Shown here: positions 51,680 to 64,000 of the stretch, piece by piece
How positions within the stretch are numbered: the first letter of the stretch is position 1
How the letters are laid out: every line of letters begins with the position of its first letter
NCBI RefSeq assembly: GCF_024707485.1
Contig: NZ_CP102602.1
Span: 1,612,001-1,676,000 of the forward strand
Source of the DNA: Thermococcus thermotolerans
GTDB taxonomy: Archaea; Methanobacteriota_B; Thermococci; Thermococcales; Thermococcaceae
Length of the DNA stretch: 64,000 bases
Direction of reading: 5' to 3'
Made by a program: the position numbers and the translations under genes
Notes under the pieces: model-generated
What the model saw: only the letters and a program-made list of their open reading frames with translations
Databases searched by the model: none
Told to the model about the DNA's origin: nothing

Positions 51680-52108
51680 ATGAAGGTCAGGCTTACGAAA
51701 GAACCCTTTGACCTCAACGAGGCTTTGGGCTACCTCCTGGTTCCGGAGGCTGGTGGCTATGTGTTCTTCCTTGGCAAGGTCAGAAACGAGAACCACGGGA
51801 GGAGGGTAGAGAAGCTCATCTACGAGGCCTATCCTGAGATGGCCGAGGCTGAGATGGCCCGTATACGAAAAGAGGCCCTTGAGAGGTTCCCCATTCTGGA
51901 CATGCTTATCTGGCACCGCTACGGAGAGCTTGAAGTCGGTCAGGACACGATACTCATTATCGCCAGTGGCAGGCACAGGAAGGAGGCCTTTGAGGCCTGC
52001 ATGTGGGCAATTGATGAGGTGAAGCGCCGCGTCCCGGTGTGGAAGAGGGAGGTGACGGATGAGGGCACCTTCTGGATCGAGGGCGACCGGCTGGTTCCTG
52101 AGAAGTGA
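51680..52108 (+). CDS. moaE: Molybdopterin synthase catalytic subunit MoaE
   Basis: 142 residues. GYVFFLGKVRNENHGRRVEK (the LG.VR segment), LIYEAYPEMAEAEMARIRKE, IWHRYGELEVGQDTILIIAS, and the C-terminal RVPVWKREVTDEGTFWIEGD with the catalytic Lys are typical. Makes molybdopterin with MoaD-thiocarboxylate, needed for tungsten or molybdenum enzymes. Its MoaD-like partner and E1-like enzyme lie just upstream at 49757-50723. GGGGGGATGAG precedes the ATG. Confidence 0.93.
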   Translation: MKVRLTKEPFDLNEALGYLLVPEAGGYVFFLGKVRNENHGRRVEKLIYEAYPEMAEAEMARIRKEALERFPILDMLIWHRYGELEVGQDTILIIASGRHRKEAFEACMWAIDEVKRRVPVWKREVTDEGTFWIEGDRLVPEK

Positions 52109-52110
52109 TT

Positions 52111-52161
52111 TTCCATTTTTTGCAGACTACTCTTAGTAGTGTGCAAAATCGGAATAGAAAA
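52111..52161 (+). promoter_or_regulatory. Shared upstream element (copy 2), before the SPASM-domain gene
   Basis: Matches 46003-46053 at 42 of 51 positions. Within it 52119-52147 is a 29-bp inverted repeat, arms TTTGCAGACTACT and AGTAGTGTGCAAA with one mismatch and a 3-nt centre, followed by GAATAGAAAA and a strong TATA box (TATATATAC, about 52163-52172). Likely regulator binding site. Confidence 0.7.
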
Positions 52162-52204
52162 AGTATATATACAATTCTGTCCCTCTCCTCTATGGTGAGG
52201 ATTA

Positions 52205-53137
52205 ATGGAGAGGGTAGCCTACGATGCATCTCATACCGTTGATGTGGGGATGGCCCTCAATATAGTCTCCATAGGAAAGCCTCCTTGGAGCAACAGCTCC
52301 CACAATGGCAGGCTTGAGCGTCTCATCGTGCAACTTGGTGCAGGAAACGGTAAATTCTCCGAGATTAACGGCATACCGCGCTCAATAGGGTGTATAGGGA
52401 ACAGCTCCTTCATTCTTCGGAGGGAACCTCTCAGTCCCGAAAGGGTGAAGGAGCTTATCCGGGAGTTCAAGGAGATAGGCGGAAAGGAACTCTGGCTCAC
52501 CAACTACGACAGGGTGGAATACCTTACCAGCGTTGCCACATACGCCTCTGAAATAGGCGTTCCGGAGGTCTATGCAGTCGTCAGGCTTGAGGATGTGGAA
52601 TCAGTCGAACCCGTCGATGGGGTCCGCTTCATCGCCGAGCTTGAATACTCACCGAAAAACGTTCAGAGGCTTGAGGCCCACAGCTGGCTCTACGGAGCGC
52701 TCATAATGGTGCGGGGTTCACAGCTGGATGAGCTTATGGGCCTCAAGACCACCTTCCCCGGGGAGGTCTACGTCGACGTTCTCTTCCCCGGCTCCGCTAG
52801 AAAGCTGGACTTCAACGTTATAGAGGTCAAGAGGATACTGAATCCAACCGTTGAAAGATACCACGACTGCTTGGCCGGTACGATGGCCGTAACGGCTGAC
52901 GGCTATGCGCTTCCGTGTCCGCTCCTCAGGAACTACGTTGTCGGGGATCTGAAGGAGCTGGGGATAAAGAAGGTTCTCAGAAAGAGGAGAATCAAGGCCT
53001 TCTGGAGGATGACAAAGGATGATATAGGGGCCTGCAGTGACTGTCCGTTCAGGTATATCTGCCACGACTGCAGGGCGCTAGAGTATCAGGCTACCGGTGA
53101 GATAGACGGCCTGGAATACTGCCAGATAGTATTTTAG
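52205..53137 (+). CDS. SPASM-domain Fe-S protein with a degenerate radical-SAM domain
   Basis: 310 residues. The C-terminus is a clear SPASM-type Fe-S domain: DCLAGTMAVTADGYALPCPL and GACSDCPFRYICHDCRALEY with the expected Cys ladder. The N-terminal part looks like a TIM-barrel (ERVKELIREFKEIGGKELWL, EIGVPEVYAVVRLEDVESVE), but where the radical SAM CxxxCxxC should be it reads IGCIGNSSFI, a single Cys63, so no SAM cluster can form. It may be a scaffold or peptide-binding relative of radical SAM peptide modifiers. Its promoter element is shared with the secreted precursor at 46.1 kb. A double-HTH regulator gene is convergent with 4 bp overlap. Confidence 0.75.
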   Translation: MERVAYDASHTVDVGMALNIVSIGKPPWSNSSHNGRLERLIVQLGAGNGKFSEINGIPRSIGCIGNSSFILRREPLSPERVKELIREFKEIGGKELWLTNYDRVEYLTSVATYASEIGVPEVYAVVRLEDVESVEPVDGVRFIAELEYSPKNVQRLEAHSWLYGALIMVRGSQLDELMGLKTTFPGEVYVDVLFPGSARKLDFNVIEVKRILNPTVERYHDCLAGTMAVTADGYALPCPLLRNYVVGDLKELGIKKVLRKRRIKAFWRMTKDDIGACSDCPFRYICHDCRALEYQATGEIDGLEYCQIVF

Positions 53138-54051
53138 AAGTCCAGTATGGATCGGTACCCGCTCCCGTCTTTTTTTATCCTTCGTGAGTACCTGGTCATT
53201 CCGTTCTTGTCGTTGAGTTCTTTGAATGTGGGATCAAAGTACTCTATGAGTAGCTTTTCCACGTAGTTGCTGAACTCCAGTATCTTTGTTCCCAGATCCT
53301 CTTTTGACGAGAAGAACCATTCTATGACGTATCCTCTTCCAGGGAGCACCCCAACGACGATCTCGTATTCCTTGAATCTCTCTAGGACTGATTCATCGAG
53401 GGTTTCCGTTATTCCAAGAACACTCCTGTCGTGGATATTGTTTTCCAAAGCGGGGTCGAATCCCACCAGGATTCCCATACTCTTAAGTCTGTTTATCATG
53501 AATTTTACTGTGGGGCGGGTCTTTCCGAGCCTCTGTGCTATCTTGGTTATCGGGGTTCTCGCGTCTATATTCAAGATGTCCATCAGCACAGCGTAATCGT
53601 AGCTCAGGTTCCATTCCCCGAAGTTGTCGTCCCCGCTGTATGGATACGCCCTGACCTCATAGTATTCATAGTCGTCGGAGTATTTTGATAGCATCTCGTC
53701 TATCCTGTCCTTCTGGTCGTCTGGAATGTGGAGTACTGCCGATAGTCCATTCTTGAATCCGAATGCAGGATTGACATAGGCCACAAAAGGATTCTGGGCC
53801 ATTCTATAACCCGTCTCAAGTATGCTGTCTGAAGGAACGCTCAGAAACGCCAGATAACTCCTGAGGCCTATTATCCTAATATTATAAACGGCACTGACGG
53901 AGATGTATTTTCCGTAGTACTTGTCGTACAGCCTCTTGAGACGATAGTAGTCTATCCCCTCCTCCTCGGCTATTTTTTTCAGGCTATCCGTGGGATGTCT
54001 CACCAAAATCTCCACGAGAAATTCGAGCTCCTCCATGACAGGCTCGCCCAT
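53134..54051 (-). CDS. Transcriptional regulator with two Lrp/AsnC-type helix-turn-helix domains
   Basis: 305 residues. N-terminal HTH (HPTDSLKKIAEEEGIDYYRL) plus ligand-like region, then a second HTH near 165-210 (NIDARTPITKIAQRLGKTRP, TVKFMINRLKSMGILVGFDP) and a C-terminal domain. This is the duplicated-HTH Lrp-like family frequent in Thermococcales. ATG 54051 has GGTGAGGTG upstream. Its 3' end overlaps the SPASM gene end by 4 bp. It may control the element at 52111-52161, but nothing in the sequence proves that. Confidence 0.75.
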   Translation of the reverse strand: MGEPVMEELEFLVEILVRHPTDSLKKIAEEEGIDYYRLKRLYDKYYGKYISVSAVYNIRIIGLRSYLAFLSVPSDSILETGYRMAQNPFVAYVNPAFGFKNGLSAVLHIPDDQKDRIDEMLSKYSDDYEYYEVRAYPYSGDDNFGEWNLSYDYAVLMDILNIDARTPITKIAQRLGKTRPTVKFMINRLKSMGILVGFDPALENNIHDRSVLGITETLDESVLERFKEYEIVVGVLPGRGYVIEWFFSSKEDLGTKILEFSNYVEKLLIEYFDPTFKELNDKNGMTRYSRRIKKDGSGYRSILDF

Positions 54052-54122
54052 TTCACCTCACCAATATACTCCACGGAAAAGGTTATATCGTCGATGTATA
54101 TTAAACTCTTCCGGTGGTAGAC

Positions 54123-54611
54123 ATGGTGAAGATAGACGTCGTTGACATCGAAAAGCCCGAAGGGGTCGAGGTGATAATCGGGCAGGGCAACTTCTCTATA
54201 TTCACCGTTGATGACCTAGCAAAGACCCTCCTCACAACGGTTCCGGGCATAAAGTTCGGAATAGCCATGAACGAGGCCAAGCCCCAGCTGACGCGCTTCA
54301 CCGGCAACGATCCCGAGCTTGAAAAGCTTGCCGCTAAAAACGCCCTCAAGATTGGAGCCGGCCACGTCTTCGTTATACTGATGAAGAACGCGTTCCCGAT
54401 AAACGTTCTCAACGCCGTCAAGAACCACCCCGCCGTTGCCATGGTCTACGGCGCCAGTGAAAACCCGTTCCAGGTGATAATAGCTGAGACCGACCTCGGC
54501 AGGAGCGTTCTGGGGATTGTGGACGGCAAGGCCGCCAACAGGATCGAAGACGAGGAGCTCAGGAAGGAGCGCAGGGAACTCGTCGAGAGGATAGGTTACA
54601 AGATAGACTGA
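54123..54611 (+). CDS. Adenosine-specific kinase family protein (DUF355)
   Basis: 162 residues: VKIDVVDIEKPEGVEVIIGQ, GNFSIFTVDDLAKTLLTTVP, GIKFGIAMNEAKPQLTRFTG, and KNHPAVAMVYGASENPFQVI match the DUF355 family, annotated as adenosine-specific kinase from Pyrobaculum structure work. Biological role is unclear. Start ATG 54123 preferred (M4) with GGTGGTAG-type site upstream; TATATTAAAC (about 54093-54103) is a promoter. Confidence 0.82.
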   Translation: MVKIDVVDIEKPEGVEVIIGQGNFSIFTVDDLAKTLLTTVPGIKFGIAMNEAKPQLTRFTGNDPELEKLAAKNALKIGAGHVFVILMKNAFPINVLNAVKNHPAVAMVYGASENPFQVIIAETDLGRSVLGIVDGKAANRIEDEELRKERRELVERIGYKID

Positions 54612-54653
54612 AACCTTTTTATCTCTCCGTTCCCCTTCTCACTAGGTGGTCTC

Positions 54654-55208
54654 ATGAGACTGGCGTTCATCACTTCTAACCCCAGAAAGGTCGAGGAGGC
54701 GAAGAAGTACTTCGAACCGCTCGGTGTTGAAGTCTACCAGCTCCGGATGGAGTATCCGGAGATACAGGCGGATACCCTTGAGGAGGTCGCCCTCTTCGGC
54801 CTTGAATGGCTTGCCAGAAAGATTGATGGGCCGTTCTTTCTCGATGATTCTGGGCTGTTTATAGATGCCCTCGGCGGCTTCCCTGGAGTGTATTCTGCCT
54901 ACGTTTACAGAACCCTTGGGATAGGTGGAATCCTCAAGCTGATGGAGGGTGTTGAGGACAGAAATGCCCACTTCAGGAGTGTAATAGCTTACTGGGACGG
55001 TGGAGCTCACATCTTTACCGGAAGGGTCGATGGCGAGATAACCACCGCCCCTAAGGGAAGTGGCGGCTTTGGTTTCGACCCGATATTCAGGCCTCGGGGA
55101 TTTGACATTACTTTTGCCGAAATGACAACCGAGAGGAAGAACGCCATCTCCCACAGGGGGCGTGCCCTGAAGGCCTTTGCTGATTGGCTAAAGGAAAACC
55201 TTAAATAA
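54654..55208 (+). CDS. XTP/dITP pyrophosphatase (HAM1/RdgB family)
   Basis: 184 residues: [20 protein letters not shown] at the N-terminus, [20 protein letters not shown] metal-binding segment, [16 protein letters not shown] and [15 protein letters not shown]. Hydrolyses non-canonical nucleoside triphosphates (ITP, XTP, dITP) to protect DNA and RNA. Family length and motifs intact. TAGGTGGTC precedes the ATG. Confidence 0.95.
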
Positions 55209-55263
55209 GCCCATCGTTCCAAAGTTAACAGTTATAATTGAACGAATGACGAAGGGGGTCGCG

Positions 55264-55716
55264 ATGGTAGCATCACTCGATAGCACCGATTTGAGGCTGT
55301 TGAAGGAATTAAAGGAAAACGCCAGGGAGAACATAGCTAGTCTCAGCAAGAAGCTGGGGATACCGAGGACCACCGTTCACTACCGCATCAAGAAGCTGGT
55401 CGAGGAAGGGGTGATAGAGAAGTTCACGGTCAAGCCCAACTACAAGAAGCTCGACCTCGGGACGACGGCCTTTATACTCGCCAGGTACGAACCCGACTCC
55501 GGTCTGAGCCAAAGGGAGGTTGCTGAGAGGATAGCGGCCCTTGAGGGGGTCTACGAAGTCCACATAATAGCCGGCGAATGGGACCTCCTCATAAAGGTAC
55601 GCGCTCCGAGCTCCGAGGAGGTCGGGAAGATAGTAGTTGACAGGCTCCGGGAGATAAAAGGGGTTGGCCAGACCGTAACTATGGTGTCGTTCGTAACGGT
55701 TAAGGAGGAGCTTTAG
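55264..55716 (+). CDS. Lrp/AsnC family transcriptional regulator
   Basis: 150 residues: winged HTH (STDLRLLKELKENARENIAS, LSKKLGIPRTTVHYRIKKLV) and RAM ligand-binding domain (VYEVHIIAGEWDLLIKVRAP). ATG 55264 has GGGGGTC upstream (M7 of the longer frame). Binds DNA as dimers or octamers and often responds to amino acids; target here unknown. It is just upstream of the toxin-like locus, same strand, with a 397-bp gap. Confidence 0.88.
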   Translation: MVASLDSTDLRLLKELKENARENIASLSKKLGIPRTTVHYRIKKLVEEGVIEKFTVKPNYKKLDLGTTAFILARYEPDSGLSQREVAERIAALEGVYEVHIIAGEWDLLIKVRAPSSEEVGKIVVDRLREIKGVGQTVTMVSFVTVKEEL

Positions 55717-55820
55717 TCCTGCCGGGCGATGATTGGCGTTCTCCTTTCTGATTTTATGATGACGCGAGGGATGGTGAGCCCTGCGTTTTCTTTTAAGAGC
55801 CTCCTTAGGAGGAGGTCAGA

Positions 55821-55922
55821 ATGAGGCAGTGGTTGGTGATTGCAGTGAATTATATTTTTCTCGAAAGCCCCGCCCTTTATGACGGGAGGAAGTCTGTGGA
55901 AAATCGAGACAAAGTGTTGTGA
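55821..55922 (+). pseudogene. 33-codon frame: gene start fused to an IS200/IS605-type right-end remnant
   Basis: ATG at 55821 follows a perfect Thermococcal ribosome binding site (GGAGGAGGTC). The first dozen codons (MRQWLVIAVNYI) read as a gene start; the rest (FLESPALYDGRKSVENRDKV) overlaps GAAAGCCCCGCCCTTTATGA and CGGGAGGAAGTC (55863-55894), which resembles, in decayed form, the CCCCGCCCTTTAGGGCGGGG-AGGAAGTC sequence seen at the 3' ends of TnpB-type IS elements in Thermococcus. Probably an old insertion that truncated a gene. Confidence 0.4.
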
Positions 55923-55943
55923 TTTTCCCTGGTGTTTACGGTT

Positions 55944-55961
55944 CCGCCAGCTTTCTGGCGG
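55944..55961. terminator. Hairpin of unknown role
   Basis: CCGCCAG (55944-55950), loop CTTT, CTGGCGG (55955-55961): perfect 7-bp stem, followed by a T-containing stretch. Possibly a terminator or the end of an insertion; it recalls the hairpin at 23985-24006. Confidence 0.35.
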
Positions 55962-56113
55962 TTCTTTGATTGTCCTGTTTTGGCGATTGTAATCCGAACT
56001 TCTCGCTGAGCAGTAATCTGATTTTAATTGTCACTGCCCTGTTAATATTCAAAACAGTAAATTTTTTAATGTTTGGATTTATTATCCGTATGAAGGGCGT
56101 TGGAGGTGAATCC

Positions 56114-57094
56114 ATGGGCTGGAAGAGGGTTCTTGCTTTGGCTTTGGTGGTGCTCTTCTTGGGAATGACGGTCAGTAGTGCCAGCGCCACGGCAAGCTTC
56201 GTTAACACGACTACTAACAGTACAGTAACGGTTCCCCAGGAGCTGGCTAAGAAGGGGCCTGGGGATGATGTTAAGCCGAAGTTCCTGCCCGCTATCGGCG
56301 TTGGTATAAGTATAGTCGTGGGCAGTACGGAGTTGTTGGCACTGACGGTAAGCCTTGCGACGCTCGCGGCGATTGGTCTTTACAAGGTTATTGAGAAGTA
56401 CGGCGGCAGGGTGGCGGATGTTATTCTGCGCGCAACGGGGTTTAAGCAGCTCTCCGACTTTGGAGATGGGTTCTTTAGCGTTGCGGGTTCCTCTTTGGAG
56501 CATCCAAAAGTGGAGGTGCACCTTAAGAAGCTCTGGTTCATTCCCCTACCAATAGCCGAGAAAATTGTGATCAAAGACGGCTCCAGGACTGTAGTGGAGG
56601 TCAAGAAGAGCGAGCTCGATCAGATCAACGACCTCTTCACCCCGAAAGAATTTGGACGACTCTTGGGCCAAGCATACCTCAACGGATGGGATGCCAACGA
56701 TGCTAAGAAGCTTGCAGAGGAGTTTGATAGGAAGTACAAGAACTTTCGGGTAAAGTTCAGGGGAAGATACGCCTGCGGCAGCTACTTCTCGGAAGGAGAC
56801 GTCATCATTGATGATGAAGGGGCGACACACATAATTGAAAGGCACATTAAAAGGAGAGTGTACGACCACAAATCGAAATTTGAACAGATAACCGCCAAAC
56901 AGCTCCTCCAGATGCTTGAAGAGACTATAGAAAGCGGAAGGATAAACTGTGACAGAAGCAATGCGCCACATGAAGTAGTCCTTGAAAAGTATTACTACGG
57001 GCTTGGCGCCAAGAACAAGCTAAGAGTGGTCATTAGGAAAATGTCTAATGGTCTCTACAGGATAGTGACAGCACACCCGGTGGATTGGGACTGA
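56114..57094 (+). CDS. Secreted toxin-like protein with C-terminal RNase-type domain
   Basis: 326 residues. Signal peptide MGWKRVLALALVVLFLGMTV then SSASA; hydrophobic stretch 57-90 (FLPAIGVGISIVVGSTELLA); central domain 100-225; then a C-terminal domain at 235-326 with H239-I-I-E-R-H244, Ser254 and a T-A-H321-P end. That arrangement (HxxERH near the start, S-x-F, then a Gly-rich strand and TAHP at the end) recalls RNase domains of bacterial polymorphic toxins (barnase/EndoU/colicin-type and related Ntox families), from memory. GGAGGTG precedes ATG 56114. Followed by four related genes that could encode immunity proteins. Confidence 0.6.
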   Translation: MGWKRVLALALVVLFLGMTVSSASATASFVNTTTNSTVTVPQELAKKGPGDDVKPKFLPAIGVGISIVVGSTELLALTVSLATLAAIGLYKVIEKYGGRVADVILRATGFKQLSDFGDGFFSVAGSSLEHPKVEVHLKKLWFIPLPIAEKIVIKDGSRTVVEVKKSELDQINDLFTPKEFGRLLGQAYLNGWDANDAKKLAEEFDRKYKNFRVKFRGRYACGSYFSEGDVIIDDEGATHIIERHIKRRVYDHKSKFEQITAKQLLQMLEETIESGRINCDRSNAPHEVVLEKYYYGLGAKNKLRVVIRKMSNGLYRIVTAHPVDWD

Positions 57095-57146
57095 GGACAA
57101 GAGACCACTTTTAATTTTTTTAGCTGCATAACATTGGGTGATGCAA

Positions 57147-57809
57147 ATGGTGAACTTCAAAATCACGTTTAAACTTGAGGAGCCCTTTGGACCATTGGAA
57201 AAGATGATAAAAGAGGCAGTAATAGAAGGGAAAAATTATGGATACCCAGAGGAATCGATAATAGAGACTGCCCTCAGCGAGTACGATGTTCTCATCCACT
57301 GCCAAAGAGAGGAAGTGTTTAACGCAACCGTTCACTTCAACGAATTTCTTTATGAGCTTTTCAGATTTGCATTTTATGCCGCAACCGGGGAGATCCCTGA
57401 AGACGTGAAGTCGTACGGATGGGGCTTTAACAGCATAGATGAACTCCCGAACTGGCTAGATAAGGAAGTTCGGATTCTGGGGGAACTATTGGGAGATGAG
57501 TTTGACGAGTTAACCTCCAGTCCATTTTTAAGGTCCTTCCTCGGAAGCTACGACCCGATATTGATTGTCTATGGATTCAGGAAGGGCGGTTATCTCCATT
57601 TCGTGAGTGTGGACTACAGAAAGGTCTGCAAGGTACCCATTAGCGAGTTCGTGAAGGGTGCAATGAATGTCATAGAAGAGGCTATCCTGGAATTGGAATC
57701 CTGCACCCGCGTATTTGAGGAGAATTGGATTAAGGAATACCAGGAAATGATTGATGACTATAAGAGGCTCCTTAATTTTTTAAGGAAAAAAGCCGGGAGG
57801 TGGTCTTAG
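57147..57809 (+). CDS. Candidate immunity-type protein 1 (related to 57809, 58326, 58863 genes)
   Basis: 220 residues, soluble, acidic. After MVNFKITFKLEEPFGPLEKM it shows an SYDPILIVYGFRKGGYLHFV strand pair and a C-terminal helix motif VPISEFVKGAMNVIEEAILE. The same DP-x-x-V-x-Y...VP-x-x-x-x-A-x-x-x-I-E-E pattern recurs at 57809-58321 and 58863-59720. GTG at 57138 and ATG 57141 are alternative starts; ATG 57147 fits GGTGAT. It lies 53 bp after the toxin-like gene. Family unknown; immunity is inferred from position and repetition. Confidence 0.55.
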   Translation: MVNFKITFKLEEPFGPLEKMIKEAVIEGKNYGYPEESIIETALSEYDVLIHCQREEVFNATVHFNEFLYELFRFAFYAATGEIPEDVKSYGWGFNSIDELPNWLDKEVRILGELLGDEFDELTSSPFLRSFLGSYDPILIVYGFRKGGYLHFVSVDYRKVCKVPISEFVKGAMNVIEEAILELESCTRVFEENWIKEYQEMIDDYKRLLNFLRKKAGRWS

Positions 57810-58321
57810 TGCCGGTTAAGTTCTCGGTTGATTCCACTCTCGAAGAGCTGAAGGAATCCGAAGGATTTGGGGCTGAGATCGAGGTGGAGATTAACGGAAA
57901 AGAGTTTGTATTAGCGCTCTGCTACATTGTGCAGGCGCTGTCGGCAATTCTCGCTACAGTAACCTTTGCAGTCTCGTCATGCGATGAAATCCCCTACGTG
58001 CTTGAAAAGTTCGAGGAGGACGAGAGGAGAGTGATAAGAAGGAACTGCAGGGGCAGGAAGCTCGAGGTGGGTTTCGGCACTTACGAGCCGATTTCTCCCG
58101 TGGTGTTCAGGAAGGAGGGCGATTACCTGCTCATTGAGGCCTTCGAGGATGGACGATTTATTGGCAGGGAGAGGGTTGAAGTCAGGGAGTACGTGAAAGC
58201 CGCCCTGGAATTCCTTGAGGAGTACCTGAAGGGAACCAGCGATGAGGCTTACCTGACGGGGCTTGAGAGGGTTAAAGAACTCGTGCGGAAGAGCGAGTAT
58301 AAGGACGTGCTCGAGGGTTGA
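57809..58321 (+). CDS. Candidate immunity-type protein 2
   Basis: 170 residues. VPVKFSVDSTLEELKESEGF, then TYEPISPVVFRKEGDYLLIE and RVEVREYVKAALEFLEEYLK, which line up with SYDPILIVYGFRKGGYLHFV and VPISEFVKGAMNVIEEAILE of the previous gene. GTG 57809 is preferred, sharing a base with the previous stop (TAGTG), with GGGAGGTGG 5 nt upstream. Soluble. Co-transcribed with its neighbours. Function inferred only. Confidence 0.55.
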   Translation: MPVKFSVDSTLEELKESEGFGAEIEVEINGKEFVLALCYIVQALSAILATVTFAVSSCDEIPYVLEKFEEDERRVIRRNCRGRKLEVGFGTYEPISPVVFRKEGDYLLIEAFEDGRFIGRERVEVREYVKAALEFLEEYLKGTSDEAYLTGLERVKELVRKSEYKDVLEG

Positions 58322-58325
58322 TGCC

Positions 58326-58859
58326 GTGGAATGCTCAATAACATGGGATGAGCTTGATGTTAGAAATGGACCCCTCTGGAAAGCCCTTGTCGTCCCTCCC
58401 GGACGCTACAGGATAAAGCTCGGCCCCCTGGAAGTGTTCTCGACAGTCCATAGCTTAAAGTTGATACTTGCCATAAATAGCCTTGCTAAAGGCACCATCT
58501 ACCTTCTCTCCAGTAACTTTGAGGGGATGGAGATTGAAGACGAGCCTGATTACACCACTCTGATAAGTTCCTGCAAAGCTTTTGACGGCTTTTTCCTGCT
58601 CACTTTCGGACTGCCAGAGGATTTTGGTGTGACTATGAAGCGGAAAAACGGTAAAGTCGTCCTATGCTGCCCCGATGACTTTAACGTCCCTCTCCCCACG
58701 TACTCCATCAGAAAAGTGGAGCTTTCGGCGAGGGAGCTCGGGTTGTGCATGGCCAAGGCCGTGTTTGACGCGTTCGGGAGGCTCGACACCAAAGTCCCCG
58801 AGGGCTTAAGGGACGAGTACCTCAGGTGGAGGGGTGCACTCCAGATACCGGGGGTGTGA
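58326..58859 (+). CDS. Candidate immunity-type protein 3
   Basis: 177 residues from GTG 58326, with GAGGGTTGAT upstream; the stop of the previous gene is 4 bp before. Contains RYRIKLGPLEVFSTVHSLKL and VTMKRKNGKVVLCCPDDFNV, then RKVELSARELGLCMAKAVFD, resembling the first half of the protein at 58863-59720 (LKVRVEGGMVCLTLPDGRGV then a helix with A-x-x-x-x-x-A). Soluble. A frame from 58263 overlaps the previous gene and is not used. Role inferred from the array. Confidence 0.55.
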   Translation: MECSITWDELDVRNGPLWKALVVPPGRYRIKLGPLEVFSTVHSLKLILAINSLAKGTIYLLSSNFEGMEIEDEPDYTTLISSCKAFDGFFLLTFGLPEDFGVTMKRKNGKVVLCCPDDFNVPLPTYSIRKVELSARELGLCMAKAVFDAFGRLDTKVPEGLRDEYLRWRGALQIPGV

Positions 58860-58862
58860 GCA

Positions 58863-59720
58863 GTGTTGTCTTTTTCCTTCTTTCCCCAGAATGGAAACAG
58901 GGGCTTTCCCGTGCTGGTGCTCGAAGACGGGCCGGTTTTCATCAGTGAAGACCCGGTGGTGCTGGATGAATTCATGGGCTCCCTAAAGACGCTCCAATCG
59001 ATGGAGAATCCGCCGGAAAGGCTCTGGAACCTGAAGGTAAGGGTAGAGGGCGGAATGGTCTGCCTGACGCTGCCGGACGGGAGGGGAGTGCAGGTCGCCC
59101 GCAAAAAACTCGTCGAGACAATCCGGACTTCCATCCAGAACTTGAAAGCGGTTCTCACTAATAAACCTGTGCGGATGGAGTGGCTCAGGTTCAAGCTAAA
59201 GCCGCCTTCACATGAAGTGCTTGAGATGTTCGGTGAACCTGAGGGCATCATGGACGAGTACGAGGTTCAGGTTTACGTGAGCACGTACGTGCTGGAGGCT
59301 TTCGTTAATCTCAAGGGGTACGTTGAGGAGCTTGCACTTCTCAAGGGTTTCGTGGCGGACGGAAAACTGCCCGGCGAAAGGTGGCGGGTAAAGCGGAACG
59401 TTGATGGCGAAATCAAGAGGCTGTCTTCCAAGGGGGCAAAAAAGCCGGAGGATAGGGGCCTTCTCCGCGAACTGGCGGGCCTTAAAAAGCTCTCAGCAGG
59501 AGCGGCTCCTCCCTTCGTTCGCTTTACCCTTTCAACCTACGACCCTTTTGAAGTTCTCTACGCGGCAGACTCTGGAAAGGGCGAATTTTTGCTGGCATTC
59601 GTCCTGTATTCCGGTATGGCCGTCAAAGTCCCAAAGGATGTCCTCCTAAGGGCCATTGATGAGGCCATCAAAGATGCGGAAAAGGAACTCAAAAAACTCG
59701 GCAGACCAAAGATTATTTGA
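58863..59720 (+). CDS. Candidate immunity-type protein 4, two fused domains
   Basis: 285 residues from GTG 58863 (GGGGGTGTGAG upstream). First half (about 1-100): LWNLKVRVEGGMVCLTLPDG and RKKLVETIRTSIQNLKAVLT, like protein 3. Second half (about 110-285): WLRFKLKPPSHEVLEMFGEP, a basic linker (about 190-210), then STYDPFEVLYAADSGKGEFL and VPKDVLLRAIDEAIKDAEKE, like proteins 1 and 2. So it appears to be a fusion of two types in the array. Soluble. Last gene of the operon. Confidence 0.55.
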   Translation: MLSFSFFPQNGNRGFPVLVLEDGPVFISEDPVVLDEFMGSLKTLQSMENPPERLWNLKVRVEGGMVCLTLPDGRGVQVARKKLVETIRTSIQNLKAVLTNKPVRMEWLRFKLKPPSHEVLEMFGEPEGIMDEYEVQVYVSTYVLEAFVNLKGYVEELALLKGFVADGKLPGERWRVKRNVDGEIKRLSSKGAKKPEDRGLLRELAGLKKLSAGAAPPFVRFTLSTYDPFEVLYAADSGKGEFLLAFVLYSGMAVKVPKDVLLRAIDEAIKDAEKELKKLGRPKII

Positions 59721-59823
59721 AACTTAGAGGTTAGGGGTAATAAATGGGGAGTGCTGGACCAATAAGAGACATAACCCTGTACAGTGCTACTCCGGAGATT
59801 TACCCTTAAGGACGGGGAGGAGG

Positions 59824-60651
59824 TCACATCACGCAGCACTCGTAGATTATCTCAACCTCCCTCAGGCTTTTTGCCCATTCGATGACTTTTCTGGGGGGAT
59901 TTGTCAGCCTGTCAACACCCGCTAAAACGGCCCCCTTGTCAAACTCAAGGCGCCACCTGCCCAGCGGCCGCATGCAGCCTATGCTTATCTCCCCGTCAAA
60001 ACGCTCCCTGGCGTACCTCACGACCTCAAGGCTCTCCTCAACCCCCGGTGCGGATACACCTTCCATCTCAGTCCCCCTGGTGGGGATGAGCACGTCGAGG
60101 ACTAGGACGTCTATGGGGTACTCCGCCAGCATGTCTATGGCCCTGTACTCCCAGTGGACTTTCCCGAAGTCGAGGCCTATGGTTATGTGGGGGGCGACCC
60201 TCACCCCGGCATCGGTGAGCAGGTCGAGGATTCTGAGGTAGTCTTTAACGGTTCTATCTATTTTGTAGACCCTCTTTATGACGTCGTCATCTCCCACGAA
60301 GTCGAGGGAAACGACATCTACGTATTTAACCCACTCCAGATCGTCCTCATCTATAAAGCCGACGTGGGCGTTGAGCTTTAAGCTCGTCCTCCTCTTTATC
60401 TCCTGGATTTCATCGGCGTACTTATCGAGGGGGACCTTCAGGCGGGAGTCTAGACCGCCGCTCAACAGGCAGCCTGTGTAACCTTCCCTCTCAAGGCTGA
60501 CGCAGTAATCCAGGAGATCTCTCCCGGTGGGCTTTCTCATGCTCTCAAGGTAGTGTTTCCCGCAGTGAGCACAGTTCAGCGCGCAGTAGTTTCCGGTGAG
60601 CGAGATTGAGGGAAATTTGATGCCTGGGATGTAGATTTTGAGCTTTCTCAT
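59824..60651 (-). CDS. Radical SAM protein (possible lipoyl synthase component LipS1/LipS2-like)
   Basis: 275 residues with the CxxxCxxC cluster in NYCALNCAHCGKHYL near residue 22-29, a GCLLSGGLDSRLKVPLDKYA segment, LNAHVGFIDEDD, and a Cys-rich end (GCMRPLGRWRLEF, YECCVM). Located beside enolase and the deoC end. In Thermococcus kodakarensis the lipoyl synthase subunit LipS1 (TK2109) is near enolase (TK2106); I recall this from memory, so lipS1 is only a hypothesis. AGGTGGTTTG precedes the ATG. The first 13 codons are duplicated upstream (60820-60857). Confidence 0.65.
   Translation of the reverse strand: MRKLKIYIPGIKFPSISLTGNYCALNCAHCGKHYLESMRKPTGRDLLDYCVSLEREGYTGCLLSGGLDSRLKVPLDKYADEIQEIKRRTSLKLNAHVGFIDEDDLEWVKYVDVVSLDFVGDDDVIKRVYKIDRTVKDYLRILDLLTDAGVRVAPHITIGLDFGKVHWEYRAIDMLAEYPIDVLVLDVLIPTRGTEMEGVSAPGVEESLEVVRYARERFDGEISIGCMRPLGRWRLEFDKGAVLAGVDRLTNPPRKVIEWAKSLREVEIIYECCVM
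60614..60651. repeat. 38-bp direct repeat, copy A (start of the radical SAM gene)
   Basis: Identical to 60820-60857 except one base. It encodes the first 13 residues M-R-K-L-K-I-Y-I-P-G-I-K-F of the radical SAM protein. Confidence 0.85.
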
Positions 60652-60819
60652 TCAAACCACCTTTGGGGGTTGTAGGGGGCGAAGCCCTCTCCGGTGTTTA
60701 AAGGAGAAGGAAGGGTCTGGGAAACGTAGTTTCCCGATTTATGTGGGGCGAAGCCCCACGTTCGGGGGGAGGGGGTTAGCAAGGACGTGGGGGGTGAAAC
60801 CCCCGGGTCCTGCGAGGGG
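60652..60819. repeat. Insert of GAA-loop hairpins between the direct repeats
   Basis: Four hairpins in under 150 bp: GGGC-GAA-GCCC (60677-60687), GGGAAAC-GTA-GTTTCCC (60719-60735), GTGGGGC-GAA-GCCCCAC (60743-60759) and GGGGGT-GAA-ACCCCC (60790-60804). Three share a GAA loop. Looks like a small palindromic element; no coding frame of note. Confidence 0.65.
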
Positions 60820-60857
60820 AATTTGATGCCTGGGATGTAGATTTTGAGCTTTTTCAT
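60820..60857. repeat. 38-bp direct repeat, copy B (displaced duplicate of the gene start)
   Basis: 37 of 38 bases match copy A. Copy B has its own ribosome binding site (GGTGAG) and may be the original start region. Confidence 0.85.
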
Positions 60858-61039
60858 CTAACTCACCTCAGAAAGGGGGTTGCAGGGAACGGAGTCGCCT
60901 TGAAGAGTTTGATATCCATTCTCCATCGGTCAGGGCCTCCCCGGATTAACCACTCAACTGGTTCCCTCAAGTTCAAAAAACGTTGAAGCCGGGGGTTAAA
61001 ACCCTTACTGGCCAGCAATGTAGAAAAGAAATAGGATGC

Positions 61040-63656
<2,617 letters not shown>

Positions 63657-63840
63657 CCCTTTCTTTCCTTTTGTGTGGTTGAATGCCCCACATGTTGCTG
63701 GCTTTTGTCCACTCCCTGCGGGATAACTTCAAAAAATTGCCGAAGATTCAATGAAACCCTGCAGATTTTCCGGTAAATTGCCCATTTTTGAGGAGAAAAA
63801 GTCTAAATACCTTCAGGAAAAGTAGGCACTGGTGATGGTT

Positions 63841-64000
63841 ATGGGTGATCATCTCGATATAGCTAAATATATCGACCATACGAATCTCAAACCATACGCT
63901 ACCGCCGATGATATAGTTAAGCTCTGCGAGGAAGCCAAGGAGTACGGCTTTTACGCCGTCTGTGTCAACCCGTACAGGGTAAAGCTGGCAAAAGAAGTCC
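63841..64000 (+). CDS. deoC: Deoxyribose-phosphate aldolase, partial (C-terminus off the window)
   Basis: Visible part: [20 protein letters not shown] and [20 protein letters not shown], then [11 protein letters not shown], the start of DERA (IDHTxLKP and VCVNP motifs). Cleaves deoxyribose-5-phosphate to acetaldehyde and glyceraldehyde-3-phosphate. ATG 63841 with GGTGATGGTT upstream is preferred to ATG 63835; a TCTAAATAC TATA-like sequence lies near 63802. Confidence 0.93.

What the first reader, a model, noticed from the sequence alone, without database searches (positions are those of the whole stretch)
56114..59720. Putative archaeal secreted toxin with an array of four related, probably immunity, genes
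A protein with a signal peptide and a C-terminal domain with His239-x4-His244 and a final TAHP (His321) is followed, all on the same strand and nearly gapless, by four soluble proteins that share a repeated pattern (DP-x-x-V...VP-x4-A...I-E-E) and include one two-domain fusion. Bacterial polymorphic toxin loci often have an RNase-type C-terminal domain and arrays of related immunity genes, so this could be an archaeal counterpart with secretion by the Sec route. Seen: architecture, His/TAHP motif, repeats. Inferred: toxin and immunity roles.
Basis: partly seen in the sequence, partly recalled or inferred. Interest (0 to 1): 0.88.

Follow-up and report, generated by a model that had tools for sequence, protein, structure and literature searches.

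The report
Archaeal polymorphic toxin with immunity array
A heat-loving archaeon carries a gene for a secreted, probably RNA-cutting toxin followed by its own antidote gene and three spare antidote genes that match toxins of related species, which suggests these archaea fight their neighbours with swappable toxin tips as many bacteria do.

Summary
The toxin/immunity reading is well supported by comparative evidence, though by no experiment. P0001 (56114-57094, 326 aa) has a signal-peptide-like start, a hydrophobic stretch, a conserved junction and a C-terminal domain predicted to be a BECR-type RNase: H239, H244 and T319 are invariant in 16 homologs, one homolog reaches the Pfam PBECR2 gathering score, and a confident model (pLDDT 89) re-aligns best, though modestly, with contact-dependent inhibition toxins and BrnT. 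The same N-terminal module carries other tips elsewhere; two paralogs in this genome end in a PD-(D/E)XK-like domain (sub-threshold matches). In 33 toxin/next-gene pairs the toxin domain predicts the next gene (r=0.86; 0 of 5000 permutations), the N-terminus does not (r=-0.05). P0002 is the cognate immunity gene; P0003, P0004 and P0005 match cognate immunity genes of three other toxin classes, so they are orphan immunity genes. P0004 is unrelated in sequence to the other three. The site is empty in 16 of 20 sampled congeners and holds other toxin or immunity genes in five more. Within the phylum (115 genomes held) it was found in one family only. Polymorphic toxins are a known kind; this compact family looks like a new variant. 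The 2019 survey of archaeal toxins could not be read here.

The parts
56114..57094 (+). Polymorphic toxin P0001, 326 aa, with export signal, predicted BECR-fold RNase at the C-terminus
   Evidence: homologs
56114..56194 (+). Signal peptide (residues 1-27, ending ASATA; cleavage inferred), start of the N-terminal module (residues 1-60) shared by toxins with different C-termini
   Evidence: Alignment A6 of 18 proteins chosen for carrying it, invariant L14 G17 A23 S24 A27 P55; hydropathy
56282..56392 (+). Hydrophobic stretch, residues 57-93, possible membrane-insertion or hairpin element
   Evidence: Hydropathy; role inferred
56630..56704 (+). Conserved junction DLFTPKEFGRLLGQAYLNGWDANDA (residues 173-197) before the variable toxin domain; divergence from the L039 homolog drops just after it (from about residue 201)
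   Evidence: Invariant L174 F175 P177 G181 L184 A187 G191 W192 A197 in 16 sequences; windowed divergence
56711..57091 (+). Variable toxin domain (residues about 200-326), predicted BECR RNase; invariant H239 (56828-56830), H244 (56843-56845), T319 (57068-57070)
57141..57809 (+). P0002, 222 aa, cognate immunity protein (class 8)
   Evidence: In all 10 class-8 pairs (the window and 9 others) the next gene is a P0002 homolog; model pLDDT 87
57809..58321 (+). P0003, 170 aa, orphan immunity gene; relatives directly follow class-5 toxins (L050, L061, L049)
58326..58859 (+). P0004, 177 aa, orphan immunity gene; relatives directly follow class-1 toxins (L059, L047); unrelated in sequence to the other three
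58863..59720 (+). P0005, 285 aa, orphan immunity gene; relatives directly follow class-6 toxins (L057, L052); C-terminal half homologous to P0002
55246..55716 (+). Lrp-type regulator, left border of the insertion site (not part of the system)
   Evidence: About 65-90 bp from the radical SAM gene in 16 of 20 other genomes
59824..60651 (-). Radical SAM protein, right border of the insertion site (not part of the system)
   Evidence: Present in 59 of 61 genomes of the genus

Best explanation
This is an archaeal polymorphic toxin-immunity locus. The first gene makes a protein that leaves the cell by the Sec route. A short conserved N-terminal module (signal peptide, linker, hydrophobic stretch) carries an exchangeable C-terminal nuclease tip, here a BECR-fold RNase using H239, H244 and T319; by analogy with bacterial BECR toxins the likely target is tRNA or other RNA of a competing cell. 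P0002, the next gene, makes the cognate immunity protein that keeps the producer and its kin alive, presumably by covering the active site. P0003, P0004 and P0005 are antidotes to toxin tips carried by related genomes, kept as protection against neighbours or left over from displaced toxin/immunity cassettes. Cassettes (toxin tip plus immunity gene) move between species and recombine in behind a conserved junction, in a chromosomal site that is empty in most sampled congeners. Shown: architecture, co-segregation of tip and next gene, orphan status of three genes, mosaic divergence, site polymorphism, purifying selection. Predicted: fold and catalytic residues. Inferred: toxicity, neutralisation, delivery into a neighbour.
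For: (1) Shared N-terminal module with different C-termini: own-genome paralogs L034 and L035 share residues 1-83 (61%) and 1-65 (58%) with P0001 but end in domains weakly matching UPF0102 and Hjc (and Mrr for L034), all below cut-off; six of seven further proteins of this kind match Mrr and related nuclease families, also below cut-off. (2) Co-segregation: 33 toxin-domain/next-gene pairs, r=0.86, 0 of 5000 permutations, maximum 0.27; in the 16 full-length proteins C-domain vs next gene r=0.864 (0 of 5000), N-terminal 60 aa vs next gene r=-0.046 (3315 of 5000), N-terminus vs C-domain r=-0.011. (3) P0003, P0004 and P0005 score 0.94, 0.76 and 0.81 (normalised) against next genes of toxin classes 5, 1 and 6, and no second BECR toxin was found in this genome. 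(4) BECR: invariant H, H, T, as in the 'H, H, [ST]' patterns given for two BECR toxin families in PMC3482391 (passages); PBECR2 E 5.2e-6 at the gathering score for L038 and sub-threshold PBECR2/3 in 4 of 9 other homologs; model pLDDT 89.1, pTM 0.85; the eight best re-aligned PDB rows are all entries of toxin-immunity or toxin-antitoxin systems, Z 6.0 to 3.5. (5) Exchange: proportion of synonymous differences in P0003/P0005 0.16-0.32 against 0.57-0.75 in the two flanking genes for four genomes. (6) Site empty in 16 of 20 sampled genomes, occupied by differing toxin or immunity genes in six including this one.
Against: No activity has been measured. Fold matches are modest: Foldseek's own list is topped by an NTF2-like protein at E 0.058 and has no significant row, many NTF2-like rows also follow in the re-alignment, and all Z are below 8. 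P0001 itself has no Pfam or NCBIfam match, and 5 of 10 homologs scanned singly match no BECR family. One of 33 pairs breaks the pattern: class-5 toxin L056_20 is followed by a P0002-like gene, not a P0003-like one, although a P0003 homolog lies further down that array; in four other classes the next genes split into two related subclusters at my threshold. Against G071, the closest relative, P0003 (0.22) and P0005 (0.35) are not less diverged at synonymous sites than the flanks (0.16, 0.25), and P0002 against G023 (0.42 vs 0.58, 0.64) and P0004 against G050 (0.50 vs 0.70, 0.72) differ only modestly. The permutation test does not remove relatedness, and some loci are near-identical (L063, L065, L066). 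No delivery apparatus was identified.
Confidence: 0.87

Rival explanations
1. Intracellular toxin-antitoxin or abortive-infection module: the RNase acts in the producing cell under stress or virus attack and P0002 is its antitoxin; the N-terminal hydrophobic part only anchors it to the membrane.
For: RelE, BrnT, ParE and HigB rows among the fold matches; a single membrane span behind a cleaved signal peptide would leave the C-terminus in the cytosol (inference).
Against: Signal-peptide-like start in all 18 proteins aligned (chosen for carrying the module); C-terminal swapping with PD-(D/E)XK-like tips and arrays of non-cognate immunity genes are marks of polymorphic toxins; no match in PADLOC.
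Confidence: 0.07
2. Variable surface or self/non-self recognition protein related in role to VARTIG, not a toxin; the C-terminal domain varies because it is a recognition surface.
For: Same lineage, accessory and recombining loci; VARTIG is also a module of a 5' gene plus an array in Thermococcales (PMC8416519).
Against: Catalytic-type residues are invariant while much of the domain diverges; tips resemble two nuclease superfamilies; no Ig-like domain by Pfam in the five window proteins.
Confidence: 0.04
3. Decaying cassette: a degenerate toxin locus in which only immunity is still selected.
For: Several relatives have broken toxin frames (G029/L007, G043/L009, G015).
Against: In this window the toxin frame is intact, has a ribosome-binding site, and dN/dS of the full frame is 0.19 and 0.13 against two relatives.
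Confidence: 0.02

Closest known systems
Contact-dependent growth inhibition (CdiA-CT/CdiI), BECR-type tips (6CP9, 6CP8) and PD-(D/E)XK-type tips
   Same: Exchangeable C-terminal nuclease tips of the same two superfamilies, a cognate immunity gene directly downstream, orphan toxin and immunity modules behind it (PMC9086364 passages); among the best PDB rows
   Different: 326-368 aa instead of a giant filamentous CdiA; no CdiB seen; archaeal; junction DLFxPKExG...NGWDA instead of VENN; no detectable sequence relation
Pfam PBECR2/PBECR3 nucleases (PF18810, PF18812)
   Same: One homolog reaches the PBECR2 gathering score, four others match PBECR2 or PBECR3 below it
   Different: P0001 itself is below detection; those families are described from phage proteins (by their Pfam names)
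VARTIG modules of Thermococcales (PMC8416519)
   Same: Restricted to Thermococcales, accessory, 5' gene followed by an array, C-terminal recombination between species
   Different: VARTIG has large Ig-domain proteins and mostly membrane-protein partners, and its authors found no RNase or DNase domains; here nuclease-like tips and mostly soluble immunity proteins
Archaeal polymorphic toxins surveyed by Makarova et al. 2019 (mBio 10:e00715-19)
   Same: General kind: archaeal polymorphic toxins, most commonly RNase or DNase (as cited in PMC8416519)
   Different: Paper not held; whether this family is in its tables could not be checked
Neisseria MafB/MafI loci (recalled; one paper only seen in the listing)
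   Same: Secreted toxin with swappable tip and arrays of orphan immunity genes (recalled)
   Different: Bacterial, different N-terminal domain (recalled); not compared here

Membership tests
Polymorphic toxin system | Conserved N-terminal trafficking module joined to varied C-terminal toxin domains | tested here: met
   non-BECR tips assigned only by sub-threshold matches
Polymorphic toxin system | Cognate immunity gene directly downstream, co-varying with the toxin tip | tested here: met
   33 pairs, r=0.86, 0 of 5000; one clear exception, L056_20
Polymorphic toxin system | Orphan toxin cassettes and orphan immunity genes in the locus | tested here: met
   P0003-P0005 here; toxin-domain frames without the N-terminal module in L049, L058, L061, L039, L046, L056
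Polymorphic toxin system | Tip is toxic and specifically neutralised by the immunity protein | not testable with these tools
   Needs expression and co-expression assays
BECR nuclease superfamily | Sequence relation to a recognised BECR family | tested here: met
   Homolog L038 (40% identical to P0001 in A1) reaches the PBECR2 gathering score of 27.1 bits; P0001 alone does not match
BECR nuclease superfamily | Helical segment followed by a four-stranded meander, alignable with solved BECR enzymes | tested here: inconclusive
   Model has helices 85-96 and 112-125, then strands 138-144, 153-160, 166-174; best Z 6.0, 91 aligned, rmsd 3.5, below the level that excludes a common arrangement
BECR nuclease superfamily | Conserved His, His, Ser/Thr residues (patterns given for Tox-Barnase and Tox-EndoU in PMC3482391) | tested here: met
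   H239, H244, T319 invariant in 16 of 16; patterns read; that they cluster in space was not checked
CDI (CdiB/CdiA) | CdiB transporter and giant filamentous CdiA | tested here: not met
   First gene is 326 aa; the longest frame overlapping 52000-64000 is 491 aa; the rest of the genome was not searched for CdiB
VARTIG | Large Ig-domain protein (arCOG07710) at the 5' end | tested here: not met
   No Ig or CARDB match in P0001-P0005; 326 aa, where most arCOG07710 members exceed 500 aa
Type II toxin-antitoxin | Cytosolic toxin without export signal | tested here: not met
   Signal-peptide-like N-terminus in P0001 and the 17 other aligned proteins, which were chosen for it; cleavage and export not tested

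The most novel reading that the evidence does not exclude
A self-contained, apparatus-free toxin platform of hyperthermophilic archaea: a module of about 60-95 residues (signal peptide plus hydrophobic segment) suffices to export interchangeable RNase and DNase tips and to bring them into neighbouring archaeal cells, with whole communities sharing a pool of recombining toxin/immunity cassettes (one genome, G023, holds immunity genes, one of them in two frames, for seven of the eight toxin classes defined here) and immunity families not known from bacteria.
Probability: 0.4. Interest if true: 0.85.

Novelty: new variant of a known kind. Interest (0 to 1): 0.68.

Why it matters
Zhang et al. 2012 describe classical polymorphic toxins as rare in most archaea and most immunity superfamilies as absent there (PMC3482391 passages), and the 2021 VARTIG paper could identify no nuclease toxins in the Thermococcales modules it describes (PMC8416519). 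Here is a compact family with nuclease-like tips, cognate and orphan immunity genes and cassette exchange between species of the Thermococcus group, which includes a genetically tractable species (T. kodakarensis, recalled). It makes archaeal kin recognition and antagonism directly testable, and offers heat-stable toxin/immunity pairs for structural work.

Tried and rejected
Pfam, NCBIfam, PADLOC and PHROGs scans of the five window proteins gave nothing of note (best PHROGs E 0.012, unknown function). NCBIfam on the 16 aligned toxins: chance-level matches only. PDB sequence searches: 0 hits for the toxin profile, 6 chance-level hits for the immunity profile. IMG/VR scan: 139 pattern matches, none a relative. 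Phage and plasmid collections: no match to P0001 at E 1e-3. So a viral or plasmid home is not supported; other replicons were not searched. The immunity model matches CdiI of Burkholderia dolosa best (Z 5.9, 122 aligned, rmsd 5.1), tied with MukE-MukF (Z 5.3), and Foldseek gave nothing better than E 0.5, so no fold is claimed for it. The N-terminal profile search at E 1e-3 (52 of 115 genomes) is inflated by ordinary signal peptides; I count only matches at E 1e-10 or better, 29 of 115 genomes. A fourth own-genome N-terminal match (L036) is only signal-peptide-like. A frame of 250 aa or more was not found by my script in L136 (G068), so its C-terminus was not classified. A shared origin for all four immunity genes was considered and rejected for P0004. 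H321 as a catalytic residue was rejected. VARTIG membership was rejected.


Full report
What is there. The window shows five co-directed frames between an Lrp-type regulator (55246-55716) and a radical SAM gene on the other strand (59824-60651) (names by my reading of the sequences). The first, P0001 (56114-57094, 326 aa), has a signal-peptide-like start, a hydrophobic stretch at residues 57-93, a conserved junction at 173-197 and a C-terminal domain from about residue 200. Four proteins follow with gaps of 46, -1, 4 and 3 bases; of these only P0003 has a hydrophobic stretch (31-58). None of the five matches Pfam or NCBIfam near a cut-off.

The toxin is modular. P0001 matched 32 of 94 genomes of its family at E 1e-3, N-terminal-only matches included. 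Many matches cover only residues 1-65 or only the C-terminal part. In this same genome two other proteins share the N-terminal module (61% over 1-83; 58% over 1-65) but end in a domain that weakly matches PD-(D/E)XK nuclease families, each below its cut-off (UPF0102 E 0.00014 and 0.0002). Of seven further proteins of this kind, six show the same scattered weak nuclease matches (Mrr_cat in all six) and one (L068) shows none. One protein (L054) has a weak EndoU match (E 0.0065). The N-terminal module aligned in 18 proteins, chosen for carrying it, keeps L14, G17, A23, S24, A27 and P55 invariant. At E 1e-10 or better it occurs in 29 of the 115 genomes held of the phylum, all in the window's own family; the toxin domain occurs in 29 of 115 at E 1e-3, also within that family, four of them (G055, G061, G065, G068) only weakly. 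In a pattern-limited scan of 84,980 species genomes six contigs had a relative, five named Thermococcus, Thermococcaceae or Thermococcales and one filed as a Thermotogota MAG. Archaea outside the phylum were not searched more deeply than that.

The C-terminal domain looks like a BECR RNase. In 16 full-length homologs H239, H244 and T319 are invariant while H321 is not. Zhang et al. 2012 give 'H, H, [ST]' type patterns for Tox-Barnase and Tox-EndoU (PMC3482391, passages). Of ten homologs scanned one by one, L038 reaches the PBECR2 gathering score (E 5.2e-6, 27.1 bits) and four others match PBECR2 or PBECR3 below it; five match neither. An AlphaFold model of residues 150-326 from eight sequences has pLDDT 89.1 and pTM 0.85. 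Foldseek finds nothing below E 0.058 and ranks NTF2-like proteins first. After re-alignment the best rows are CDI systems of Serratia (7m5f, Z 6.0), Klebsiella (6cp9, Z 5.0) and Yersinia (5e3e, Z 4.8), BrnT (3u97, Z 4.6) and the E. coli 3006 CDI system (Z 4.2), with NTF2-like rows from Z 3.3 down. I did not check which chains of 7m5f, 5e3e and 9w3a are toxins. The Z values are modest, so the fold claim rests on sequence, catalytic residues and fold together. Most solved CDI toxin structures fall in the same two superfamilies, BECR and PD-(D/E)XK (PMC9086364, passages).

The downstream genes are immunity genes, class by class. Of 38 toxin-domain hits in regions L034-L073 and the window, 35 span at least 55 model positions (L058_14, L061_20 and L058_15 dropped); two more (L060_15, L069_14) have no gene within 300 bp downstream and were dropped; 33 pairs remain. 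Similarity of toxin domains and of next genes correlates at r=0.86, and none of 5000 permutations reached it (maximum 0.27). As a control, in the 16 full-length proteins the N-terminal 60 residues do not predict the next gene (r=-0.046) nor the C-domain (r=-0.011), whereas the C-domain does predict the next gene (r=0.864, 0 of 5000). At my threshold eight toxin classes result. In classes 2, 3, 6 and 8 the next genes form two subclusters that are still related to each other by sequence search. In class 5 there is one real exception: L056_20 is followed by a P0002-like gene while its class mates are followed by P0003 homologs. The test does not correct for relatedness, and L063, L065 and L066 are near-identical loci.

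In the window P0002 is the cognate gene of class 8. P0003 is closest to genes that directly follow class-5 toxins (0.94 with L050), P0004 to those of class 1 (0.76 with L059), P0005 to those of class 6 (0.81 with L057). No other BECR toxin was found in this genome, so these three are orphan immunity genes. Arrays elsewhere look alike: L039 of G023 carries genes of immunity classes 8, 5, 6, 4, 3, 7 and 2 (the last in two frames) behind its toxin, then a partial class-8 toxin frame with another class-8 immunity gene. Orphan arrays of this kind are known from CDI loci and are thought to protect against other strains' toxins (PMC9086364, passages).

How related are the antidotes? Profile comparison links P0002 to the C-terminal half of P0005 (E 1.2e-11) and, more weakly, P0003 to P0002 (E 0.0011 directly, better through other classes), but P0004 to nothing. 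The P0002 model is confident (pLDDT 87.4) but has no clear fold match.

Movement. The interval between the Lrp-type and radical SAM genes is about 65-90 bp in 16 of 20 other genomes examined; in one (L099) about 1 kb lies there without a match to my queries; in three (L098, L104, L107) the left neighbours were not within 8 kb. I chose these 20 by similarity of the radical SAM gene and long contigs, not at random. In this genome and in L041, L042, L048, L050 and L059 the same interval holds toxin and immunity genes: class 8, PD-(D/E)XK-like, class 3, a broken toxin with an immunity array, class 5 and class 1. G040 has a lone P0005 homolog beside its radical SAM gene. The proportion of synonymous differences between this genome and G023, G024, G018 and G043 is 0.16-0.32 in P0003 and P0005 but 0.57-0.75 in the two flanking genes; for P0002 against G023 and P0004 against G050 the gap is smaller, and against the close relative G071 it is absent or reversed. 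Along the toxin, divergence from the G023 homolog drops from residue 201 on, just behind the junction. Toxin and immunity frames show dN/dS of 0.11-0.36 in 13 of 14 comparisons, with dS saturated in the other.

Mechanism. The reading that fits best is a Sec-exported toxin whose tip cuts RNA in a neighbouring cell, with P0002 guarding the producer and kin. Export, entry, target and neutralisation are inferred. A membrane-anchored, intracellular use cannot be excluded from sequence alone.

Known or new. Polymorphic toxin systems are a known kind, and archaeal ones have been predicted (Makarova et al. 2019, cited in PMC8416519; the paper itself is not held, and was not read). Searches of the held library for Thermococcus or Thermococcales together with polymorphic toxins, immunity proteins, BECR or contact-dependent inhibition listed no paper that, by title and start of abstract, describes this family; the nearest is VARTIG (PMC8416519: abstract, Results parts 1-2 of 3, Discussion read, and passages), whose authors found no nuclease toxins in it. 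PMC6393860 (passages) shows archaeal islands with Colicin D and PD-DExK domains as probable polymorphic toxin systems. In PMC12988326 and PMC9425974 the term 'polymorphic toxin' occurs only in reference lists. I therefore call it a new variant of a known kind, with the reservation that the 2019 survey may already list some of these genes.

Noticed in passing
window 60608-60662 and 60814-60868: The start of the radical SAM gene at the locus border is repeated 206 bp upstream (55 nt, 89% identical), so a 69-aa frame there begins like the protein itself; short frames of the same cluster were called next to this gene in L042 and L050.
   Followed up: partly
window 62409-63656: Putative secreted protein with a C-terminal [21 protein letters not shown] tail, which looks like a CGP-CTERM sorting signal (name recalled).
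   Followed up: no
L034 8259-10432 and L035 4443-5604: The PD-(D/E)XK-like toxins of the same genome are followed by their own short arrays of similar-looking genes; the family of the first gene has no profile similarity to the BECR immunity classes.
   Followed up: partly
L075: A contig filed as a Thermotogota MAG carries this toxin type plus P0003- and P0004-like immunity genes; probably Thermococcus-group DNA put in the wrong bin.
   Followed up: no
L036 3321-4151: A 276-aa secreted protein of the same genome with only signal-peptide-level similarity to the module and no convincing Pfam family; a 53-aa hydrophobic frame follows.
   Followed up: no
L099 (G015), between the radical SAM and Lrp-type genes: About 1 kb lies in the otherwise empty insertion site without a match to any toxin or immunity query.
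   Followed up: no
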